This document shows positions 54,698 through 55,716 of a DNA stretch of 64,000 nt, piece after piece. Numbering within the stretch: position 1 is the stretch's first letter; every line of letters starts with the position of its first letter. Position numbers and translations under genes: made by a program. The notes beneath the pieces were generated by a model. The model saw nothing but the letters and a program-made list of their open reading frames with translations, made no database searches and was not told the DNA's origin. This DNA comes from an uncultured Pelagibacteraceae bacterium (GTDB taxonomy: Bacteria > Pseudomonadota > Alphaproteobacteria > Pelagibacterales > Pelagibacteraceae). The stretch spans positions 115,621 through 179,620 of the forward strand of contig CACJNE010000002.1 of NCBI GenBank assembly GCA_902594675.1. The letters are read 5' to 3'.

Positions 54698-55493
54698 AGA
54701 AAAAAATAAAAAAGTAATTAAAAAAAAAACAAGAACATCAAAGAAATTAATAAAAACAAAAAAAAAAACTAAAATAAAAAAAGTAAAAAAAATTGCAAAA
54801 AATTTAAAAAAAAAGAACGCTTTAAGAGAAACAAAAAAAAAGGATAAGGTTGAAGTCAAAACTGATCCATTGAGAATTCCTAAAAATAACGAACAAAAAC
54901 CTGAAATCAAAAAAGTTAAGAAGCAAGATACAGAGAAAAGATTATTTAAAGTGAAGGATTATGTTGTTTATCCTAAACATGGTGTTGGACAAATTACTGA
55001 AACTAAAAAAATAAATATAGGCGGAATTGATGTAGAAACTTACATTATGAAGTTTGAAAAGGATAAGGCAAATGGCATGGTGCCGATAAATAAACAATCT
55101 CATTTAAGACCACTGGCTACCATAAATCAAATAAATAAATGTGTGAGTATATTGAAAAGCAAACCAAAAATAAAACGTTCAATGTGGAGTAGAAGAGCTC
55201 AAGAATACGAAGCTAAAATATCTTCTGGCAAAATTTATGATTTAGCTGAGGTTGTAAGAGATCTTAATAAAGGTGATGATATAATGATTGATCAGTCATA
55301 TAGTGAAAGACAATTATTTGAAAAGGCTTATGAAAGATTGTTAACCGAATTCCAAATAGTTATGGGATCAAATTTAGAGGATGCACAAAAAAAACTTGAT
55401 AAAGCCTTAAAAAGGAATTTGGAAAAACAAATGCAAAAAGTTGAACAAAAGCCTGTAACAGAGGAAGTAATTAATCAGGAAATATCGGATTAA
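54666..55493 (+). CDS. carD: CarD-family transcription regulator with Lys-rich N-terminal extension
   Basis: A 275-aa protein. Residues from about 93 onward form a CarD domain: LFKVKDYVVYPKHGVGQITE, the RNA-polymerase-interacting Tudor-like part, then helices with SMWSRRAQEYEAKISSGKIYDLAEVVRDL. CarD binds RNA polymerase beta and stabilises open promoter complexes, often at rRNA promoters. The first 60 residues contain about 28 lysines, a polycationic tail not part of the family. A TTG at residue 69 could be an alternative start giving about 207 residues. The ATG overlaps fdxA by 32 nt. Its stop is 5 nt before a hairpin terminator belonging to the opposite strand. Confidence 0.88.
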   Translation: MKNILKKILNKEKNKKVIKKKTRTSKKLIKTKKKTKIKKVKKIAKNLKKKNALRETKKKDKVEVKTDPLRIPKNNEQKPEIKKVKKQDTEKRLFKVKDYVVYPKHGVGQITETKKINIGGIDVETYIMKFEKDKANGMVPINKQSHLRPLATINQINKCVSILKSKPKIKRSMWSRRAQEYEAKISSGKIYDLAEVVRDLNKGDDIMIDQSYSERQLFEKAYERLLTEFQIVMGSNLEDAQKKLDKALKRNLEKQMQKVEQKPVTEEVINQEISD

Positions 55494-55530
55494 AAAAAAC
55501 GCTTCCCACGCATTCGCCATGGGAAGCGTT
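55491..55530 (-). terminator. Intrinsic terminator of the 27-aa peptide gene
   Basis: Perfect 11-nt arms AACGCTTCCCA (55498-55508) and TGGGAAGCGTT (55520-55530) enclose an 11-nt loop. On the minus strand a run of eight T (55492-55499, partly in the stem) follows, so it terminates minus-strand transcription. On the plus strand no T run follows, so it is not a typical carD terminator. It overlaps the carD stop codon. Confidence 0.9.
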
Positions 55531-55552
55531 ATCAGTTAAAAAGAATACTAAA

Positions 55553-55636
55553 CTATCTTCTTTTTTTCTTCTTAGCCTTTTTCTTAGCTTTTTTCTTAGT
55601 TTTCTTTTTAGCAGCTTTTTTTCTTCTTTTAGCCAT
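55553..55636 (-). CDS. 27-aa polycationic Lys/Ala/Arg peptide
   Basis: The ORF encodes 27 residues: 16 Lys, 4 Arg, 5 Ala, 1 Thr and the initial Met. It begins MAKRRKKAAKKKTKKKA and ends KRR, giving about +20 charge, like a histone H1 or protamine tail. A ribosome-binding site GGGAG (55643-55647) lies 6 nt from the ATG, unusually strong for this window. Upstream are a TTGACA promoter and a hairpin; downstream is a strong terminator. It probably binds DNA or RNA, but that is inference from charge. It could alternatively be the coding part of a small RNA. Confidence 0.72.
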   Translation of the reverse strand: MAKRRKKAAKKKTKKKAKKKAKKKKRR

Positions 55637-55657
55637 CTTTAGCTCCCTTTTTTTATA

Positions 55658-55678
55658 AACGAATCTTTATGATTCGTT
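55658..55678 (-). promoter_or_regulatory. 5' leader hairpin of the 27-aa peptide mRNA
   Basis: AACGAATC (55658-55665) and GATTCGTT (55671-55678) are perfect 8-bp arms with a TTTAT loop on the plus strand. On the minus strand the structure lies between the predicted transcription start (about 55681) and the GGGAG ribosome-binding site. It would therefore form at the very 5' end of the mRNA. It may stabilise the message, or the DNA palindrome may be an operator. Confidence 0.65.
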
Positions 55679-55687
55679 AATAACTAA

Positions 55688-55716
55688 TTTTTATTTTTTT
55701 TGCATAGTTATGTCAA
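55688..55716 (-). promoter_or_regulatory. Sigma-70 type promoter of the 27-aa peptide gene
   Basis: On the minus strand TTGACA (plus-strand 55711-55716) matches the -35 consensus fully. After exactly 17 nt comes TAAAAA (55688-55693), four of six matches to the -10 consensus. Transcription would begin near 55681, giving a leader of about 45 nt that contains the 8-bp hairpin. The A-rich spacer is typical of this genome, so the -10 call is less sure than the -35. Confidence 0.6.

What the first reader, a model, noticed from the sequence alone, without database searches (positions are those of the whole stretch)
55491..55716. Complete tiny transcription unit for a 27-residue polycationic peptide
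In 226 nt on the minus strand the sequence shows a consensus TTGACA -35, a -10-like TAAAAA, an 8-bp leader hairpin, a strong GGGAG ribosome-binding site, a 27-codon ORF (16 Lys, 4 Arg, 5 Ala) and an 11-bp hairpin with a T8 tract. Such full signals are rare in this compact genome, where most genes have weak sites and no terminator. That implies strong, separate expression. A histone- or protamine-like nucleic-acid binder is the simplest idea. It may also act as a small RNA of about 185 nt that happens to encode a peptide.
Basis: partly seen in the sequence, partly recalled or inferred. Interest (0 to 1): 0.85.

Follow-up and report, generated by a model that had tools for sequence, protein, structure and literature searches.

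The report
Tiny histone-like peptide of ocean bacteria
SAR11 bacteria of the ocean share a conserved, easily overlooked gene for a peptide of only 21 to 58 amino acids, 60 to 86 percent of them positively charged, which likely coats DNA and is predicted to be switched by the DNA-methylation system that follows chromosome copying.

Summary
Every signal listed lies at 55492-55716 on the minus strand, and 100 simulated windows gave no comparable ORF.

The gene is real and old. It lies convergent to carD in 126 of 131 SAR11-order loci taken; the five misses end at a contig edge. It spans six genera of the family (21-58 aa) and, as an 80-aa histone-H1-tail-like protein, a sister family. In 108 same-family loci every residue after Met is K, R, A, T, P, S, V or G; pN/pS is 0.09-0.49. 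This speaks against an RNA that merely happens to encode a peptide.

New here: the leader hairpin holds a GANTC site inside the extended GcrA motif. The motif is kept in 121 of 121 leaders (CGAATCA in 120, 33-36 nt after the -35 box), while its pairing partner changes or is lost. GANTC is two-fold depleted in the window. GcrA (48 of 52 genomes) and a CcrM-type domain (51 of 52) are encoded; Pelagibacter is reported to lack CtrA.

Best reading: a minimal protamine/H1-tail-like nucleic-acid binder from a strong promoter, predicted to be gated by GcrA/CcrM. Expression, binding and methylation control are untested. Trypsin leaves no piece over 3 residues, so ordinary proteomics would miss it.

The parts
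55711..55716 (-). -35 box TTGACA
   Evidence: Sequence; exact TTGACA in 117 of 121 leaders, TTGAC[AT] in 121 of 121
55688..55693 (-). -10-like TAAAAA, 17 nt from the -35 box
   Evidence: Sequence only; conservation not counted
55670..55676 (-). CGAATCA: GANTC (CcrM-type site) within the extended GcrA motif TGATTCG on the other strand; about +6 from the inferred start
   Evidence: CGAATCA in 120 of 121 leaders, YGAKTCG on either strand in 121 of 121; motif from PMC7987155 passages
55660..55665 (-). Second GANTC as GATTCG, mirror arm of the hairpin
   Evidence: Kept in 82 of 83 leaders of the own genus; not GATTCG in g2-g6 and f2
55658..55678 (-). 5' leader hairpin, 8 bp with a 5-nt loop
   Evidence: Sequence; RNAfold of the predicted leader
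55643..55647 (-). Ribosome-binding site GGGAG
   Evidence: GGAG at the right distance in 121 of 121 leaders
55553..55636 (-). 27-codon ORF MAKRRKKAAKKKTKKKAKKKAKKKKRR with stop
   Evidence: Orthologues in 126 of 131 loci; pN/pS 0.09-0.49 in five length classes
55492..55530 (-). Terminator: 11-bp hairpin 55530-55498 with T8 55499-55492
   Evidence: Sequence; GCGTTTTT downstream in 124 of 125 loci with enough sequence
54666..55493 (+). Neighbour: carD, convergent; used as synteny anchor
   Evidence: Pfam CarD_TRCF_RID and CarD_C

Best explanation
This is a conserved one-gene transcription unit of SAR11 bacteria for a 27-residue peptide with 20 positive side chains that likely coats and neutralises nucleic acid, most likely the chromosome, in the manner of a protamine or a histone-H1 tail, and whose promoter is predicted to be switched by GcrA and the CcrM methylation mark. 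Shown by sequence: the -35 box, a GANTC site just downstream of the predicted start, a 5' hairpin, a strong ribosome site, the ORF, a terminator, and their conservation across the order. Inferred: RNA polymerase with GcrA fires at the methylated (or freshly hemimethylated) site, so synthesis follows replication of the locus; the hairpin-capped short mRNA is stable and well translated; the disordered peptide binds phosphate backbones without sequence preference, beside the HU/IHF proteins that the genomes also encode.
For: Peptide in 126 of 131 loci. Only K, R, A, T, P, S, V, G among 2815 residues after Met in 108 family loci; pN/pS 0.09-0.49. H1-tail-like longer orthologues at the same place. 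Scan not anchored on carD: 71 of 120 rows have both the K/R-rich ORF and the CGAATCA leader, 69 of the 71 convergent to carD, 2 with no carD in the stretch held. Extended GANTC motif in 121 of 121 leaders at a fixed place, although GANTC is depleted (98 against 187 expected). Layout unique in the genome. GcrA in 48 of 52 and RAMA/CcrM in 51 of 52 genomes. Two of two readable ccrM genes carry three GANTC upstream, three of three HU genes none.
Against: No call shows transcription, translation, DNA binding or methylation. GcrA was not found in 4 of 52 genomes (G029, G054, G104, G110; G104 is 99% complete), and G251's RAMA match is a fragment with a stop. In PMC7987155 very few conserved orthologues of Ca. 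P. ubique had a high probability of GcrA control, B. subvibrioides GcrA showed no preference for the extended motif, and presence of the motif alone is called a poor proxy (passages). The motif as such is not enriched in the window (4 against 5.3 expected). CGAATCA also takes part in the hairpin in the own genus, so RNA constraint can explain part of its conservation. A MAG titled Pelagibacteraceae (L186, L188) has an H1-like protein whose leader lacks the motif. DNA as against RNA or polyphosphate as target rests on analogy.
Confidence: 0.55

Rival explanations
1. The peptide acts on RNA or ribosomes (a tiny ribosome- or RNA-associated cationic protein), not on the chromosome.
For: Small size, extreme basicity and strong translation signals resemble tiny ribosomal proteins such as eL41 and bTHX (recalled); composition alone cannot tell DNA from RNA.
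Against: Length varies from 21 to 58 aa in the family and 80 aa in the sister family by adding repeats, which fits a disordered coat better than a fixed ribosomal part; the conserved promoter site points to the chromosome cycle; no solved chain matched at E<=10, a weak test for a biased 27-mer.
Confidence: 0.2
2. The same nucleic-acid-binding peptide, but GANTC conservation reflects only the RNA hairpin or the early transcribed sequence; GcrA and CcrM play no part.
For: CGAATCA is an arm of a 5' hairpin in 114 two-armed leaders; the arm pair next to it changes A-U to G-U in 15 and to G-C in 1 of 114; g5 and L161 keep pairing by wobble although the second GANTC is lost.
Against: CGAATCA stays in g2, g3 and g4 where the partner arm is gone; RNAfold leaves CGA (L065) or CGAA (L064, L070) unpaired. 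A hairpin does not need one fixed sequence in GANTC-poor genomes.
Confidence: 0.2
3. A regulatory small RNA of about 190 nt in which the ORF is incidental.
For: Promoter, hairpins and terminator of sRNA size.
Against: Variation follows codons, with no acidic, aromatic or amide residue among 2815; ribosome site in 121 of 121 leaders; no Rfam family at gathering score for this unit in the window or in four relatives.
Confidence: 0.03

Closest known systems
Bacterial histone-H1-like proteins (chlamydial Hc2, Pseudomonas AlgP)
   Same: K/A-rich, repeat-built, probably disordered cationic proteins; Hc2 varies in size through lysine-rich repeats (PMC2848022, search listing)
   Different: Hc2 is 165-237 aa (same listing), this is 21-58 aa; different leader and gene place; no Pfam match
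Protamines of sperm (recalled)
   Same: Very short, extremely cationic, no fold
   Different: Mostly Lys here, Arg-rich there; bacterial; no homology tested or claimed
GcrA/CcrM-controlled promoters of Caulobacter
   Same: Methylatable GANTC in the extended motif TGATTCG/YGAKTCG near a promoter (PMC7987155 and PMC3667746, passages)
   Different: Site lies about +6 by inference; no methylation or GcrA binding data for SAR11 were seen; no nucleoid-type peptide was named as a target in the passages read
HU/IHF (PF00216)
   Same: Small basic nucleoid proteins; present beside it in 31 of 31 genomes
   Different: Folded about 90-aa proteins; three of three HU upstream regions examined have no GANTC

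Membership tests
Hc1/Hc2-type H1-like proteins | Match to a curated family model | tested here: not met
   No Pfam family for the 27-mer at E<=0.1 nor for five longer relatives at E<=10; no NCBIfam family for six proteins. HMMER filters are weak on such biased sequences.
Hc1/Hc2-type H1-like proteins | K/A-rich repeats with length variation | tested here: met
   21-58 aa in the family and 80 aa in the sister family, built of K, R, A, T and P. Shows likeness of kind, not descent.
Hc1/Hc2-type H1-like proteins | Binds and condenses DNA | not testable with these tools
   Bench assay needed
GcrA/CcrM-regulated gene | GANTC within the extended motif in the promoter, conserved between orthologues | tested here: met
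   121 of 121 leaders of at least 90 nt
GcrA/CcrM-regulated gene | Organism encodes GcrA and CcrM | tested here: met
   The own genome has both; 48 of 52 and 51 of 52 genomes, exceptions listed in the report
GcrA/CcrM-regulated gene | Methylation and GcrA-dependent activity | not testable with these tools
   Needs methylome and reporter data
Small basic ribosomal proteins (eL41, bTHX) | Near-constant length (recalled) | tested here: not met
   21 to 80 aa between orthologues
Known small RNA families | Rfam match at gathering score | tested here: not met
   Only tRNAs in the window and in four relatives

The most novel reading that the evidence does not exclude
SAR11, among the most numerous cells in the sea, carries a minimal bacterial 'protamine': an H1-type nucleoid protein worn down by genome streamlining to 21-30 residues and made in step with chromosome replication, because its promoter is read by GcrA through the CcrM methylation mark.
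Probability: 0.4. Interest if true: 0.9.

Novelty: new variant of a known kind. Interest (0 to 1): 0.75.

Why it matters
A gene kept across an order known for genome streamlining is probably important, yet it is doubly easy to miss: the 84-nt ORF is below the size that common gene callers accept (recalled), and trypsin leaves no piece longer than 3 residues, so ordinary proteomics cannot see it. It would add a component to the nucleoid of some of the smallest free-living cells. It also offers a concrete candidate target for the GcrA/CcrM circuit in a lineage reported to lack CtrA (PMC2877005 and PMC7987155, passages), which makes cell-cycle control in SAR11 testable.

Tried and rejected
Rfam at low threshold gave only weak hits (best E 0.029, rli38; rhtB on the opposite strand), all below gathering score. 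Incidental ORF in an sRNA: the codon data speak against it. Pair counting on a three-sequence alignment was uninformative because no pair varies; I counted arms in 114 leaders instead, where the innermost pairs hardly vary, so covariation support for the hairpin is modest. Wider origin in the class: 28 carD loci outside SAR11 (L094-L121, of 134 such genomes with a match) showed no K-rich ORF convergent to carD under my filter; L101 has a K/A-rich ORF just upstream of carD on the same strand. Protein search with the 58-aa relative (7986 candidates scored) gave no hit at E<=0.001, so how databases annotate the family could not be learned. Meyer 2009 (PMC2704228; abstract, outline, passages, section 10) has no occurrence of 'lysine' or 'carD' in the main text. 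The Red Sea transcription-start paper (PMC5069720; passages and section 9) names no such transcript in what I read; its dataset S2 was not readable. Searches listed no paper that by title or abstract start describes this peptide; the library omits most subscription journals. PADLOC was not searched and no structure was predicted.

Left out of counts: 5 loci cut by contig ends; 5 leaders shorter than 90 nt; 21 of 120 pattern hits that are not short K/R-rich ORFs. In one search a loose regex printed 125 of 125 terminators; the strict count is 124. Genomes without a carD match (19 of 101, 25 of 197) were not examined for the peptide, and many with a match were not fetched.

Full report
What is there. 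On the minus strand at 55716-55492 there is a complete monocistronic unit: TTGACA, 17 nt, TAAAAA, a hairpin, GGGAG, a 27-codon ORF and an 11-bp terminator with T8. It is the only ATG ORF of 20 aa or more with at least 50% K+R in the window; 100 order-3 Markov windows gave none at 70% and one at 50%. The ribosome-site-plus-start pattern occurs once in the window, with no match in 100 shuffles, and once in the 1.24-Mb genome.

It is a conserved gene. With carD (54666-55493) as anchor I searched 101 genomes of the genus and 197 of the order (overlapping sets; 82 and 172 had a carD match) and took 131 loci, 52 by score and 79 chosen to cover other genera and weaker matches. The peptide is present in 126 of 131, counting the window's own copy L001; L005, L088, L131, L143 and L157 end at a contig edge before the place. 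Orientation: 55 of 126 were computed as convergent to carD; in the other 71 the stretch held too little carD to compute it, and there the peptide's strand is opposite to the carD strand printed (compared by eye). Lengths are 21-35 aa in the own genus, 36 and 38 in g2, 31 in g3, 34-58 in g4, 21-24 in g5, 22 in g6, and 80 aa (from a GTG, or 85 from an upstream ATG) in 18 of 18 sister-family f2 loci, which are closely related to one another. The f2 protein is of the type KPAKKKAAPKKKK; the same neighbour and the same promoter layout argue for orthology. K+R make up 60-86% of the 126 peptides.

It is selected as protein. Over 108 family loci (61 distinct coding sequences, 44 distinct peptides) the 2815 residues after Met are only K, R, A, T, P, S, V and G. 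Single-base neighbours of AAA/AAG such as Glu, Asn, Gln or Ile never appear. pN/pS is 0.37, 0.14, 0.09, 0.29 and 0.49 in the 22-, 23-, 25-, 27- and 29-aa classes, the five with at least four distinct sequences. The ribosome site is kept in 121 of 121 leaders and the terminator core GCGTTTTT in 124 of 125.

A scan not anchored on carD. In these rows 99 are K/R-rich ORFs of at most 100 aa. Of the 99, 71 have the CGAATCA leader, and 69 of the 71 are convergent to carD; L236 and L256 have no carD in the stretch held. Titles were printed for 80 of the 120 rows; the motif-bearing rows among them are titled Pelagibacteraceae, Pelagibacterales, SAR11 or Pelagibacter. The 28 K/R-rich ORFs without the motif include proteins of other alphaproteobacteria, Planctomycetota and Bdellovibrio-like groups. 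Against a strict rule: one MAG titled Pelagibacteraceae (L186, L188) has an H1-like protein with another leader and no motif.

The leader is more than a hairpin. CGAATCA stands in 120 of 121 leaders, 33-36 nt after TTGAC[AT]; L026 has CGAATCG. On the other strand this is TGATTCG (or CGATTCG), the extended GANTC motif proposed for GcrA activation in Caulobacter (TGATTCG, YGAKTCK, YGAKTCG; PMC7987155 passages). GANTC is depleted in the window, 98 against 187 expected, and occurs 0.138 times per 120 nt elsewhere in the same loci, so about 17 of 121 leaders would hold one by density alone; relatedness makes this a rough guide (108 of the 121 leaders differ in their last 80 nt). The extended motif as such is not enriched in the window (4 against 5.3); its conservation and fixed place speak, not its presence. 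The own genus also has a mirrored GATTCG in 82 of 83; L161 has GGTTCG, which still pairs by wobble. The partner is GATTTG in g5 and g6, GATTCA in f2 and absent in g2, g3 and g4, where other stems form; RNAfold leaves CGA (L065) or CGAA (L064, L070) unpaired. So the site outlives its pairing partner. g2 and g4 leaders also hold a CTCC that can pair with the ribosome site (L064, L065, L070). TTGACA-N(24-38)-CGAATCA and the two-armed palindrome are each unique in the own genome.

The switch is encoded. GcrA (PF07750) was found in 27 of 31 relatives and in 21 of 21 further genomes of other genera; the four misses (G029, G054, G104, G110) were searched twice. The RAMA domain typical of CcrM (PF18755) was found in 30 of 31 and 21 of 21, G039 lacking it twice and G251 having a fragment with a stop. 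In nine loci I tried to read upstream regions and could do so in six: two ccrM genes (with the same pattern, so perhaps one event) have three GANTC within 200 nt, one gcrA and three HU genes have none. Pelagibacter is reported to lack CtrA (PMC2877005 and PMC7987155, passages). In Caulobacter GcrA covers fully methylated ctrAP1 from -35 to +7 and, when hemimethylated, also with lower affinity a region from +5 onwards (PMC3667746 passages). Against: PMC7987155 found very few Ca. P. ubique orthologues with a high probability of GcrA control and no extended-motif preference in B. subvibrioides.

Mechanism. Shown: anatomy, conservation, selection, presence of regulators. Inferred: a transcription start near 55681, GcrA-aided firing linked to methylation state and so to replication, a hairpin-capped mRNA, and a disordered peptide with 20 positive side chains that binds nucleic acid. 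DNA is preferred over RNA because the longer orthologues look like H1 tails and the promoter element points to the chromosome cycle, but no call separates the two. HU/IHF-type proteins coexist (31 of 31 genomes), so the peptide would add to them.

Novelty. The 27-mer has no match in Pfam (E<=0.1), NCBIfam, PHROGs or solved structures (E<=10), five longer relatives none in Pfam or NCBIfam, and the unit none in Rfam at gathering score; such tools are weak on short biased sequences. Seven literature searches listed no description. It works like a small H1 tail or protamine; it is not filed as a member of those families.

Noticed in passing
L290, L291, L293, L295, L296, L299, L301, L302, L304, L306, L308, L311, L312, L315, L317, L333, L337, L340, L341: Viral contigs encode 20-23-aa polylysine peptides (e.g. 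MPKKKKKAKKKKKKAKAKKKKKR) directly downstream of other genes; neighbours in L295, L299 and L311 match exonuclease, terminase small subunit, 2OG-Fe(II) oxygenase and tryptophan halogenase PHROGs.
   Followed up: partly
L183, L197, L205, L206, L232, L254: Near-identical 19-21-aa peptides (MAKKKKKAAKKVAKKKKGHG and similar), in Planctomycetota-titled genomes where a title was shown: another tiny cationic family.
   Followed up: no
L191, L204, L214, L216, L220, L226, L239, L251, L259, L281, L186, L188: H1-like proteins of mostly 57-81 aa, in records titled uncultured Alphaproteobacteria where shown (one MAG Pelagibacteraceae), with another conserved leader (TTGACTTT..GCGTAAGTTTTG; GGAGG..CCTCC hairpin before the start) and no GANTC motif; in L191 carD lies 6.3 kb away.
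   Followed up: partly
L064, L065, L066, L067, L069, L070: Leaders of genera g2 and g4 hold CTCC that can pair with the GGAG ribosome site, a possible translation switch (L064, L065 and L070 folded).
   Followed up: partly
window 54666-54920: The SAR11 CarD protein has a long lysine-rich N-terminal extension before the RID domain (domain from residue 94).
   Followed up: no
window 51378-51384: Another TGATTCG about 50 nt upstream of the helicase-like ORF 51433-53946.
   Followed up: no
G251:C1:621780-621971: RAMA (CcrM) match is a fragment with an in-frame stop in a one-contig genome that keeps GcrA and the leader motif (L070).
   Followed up: no
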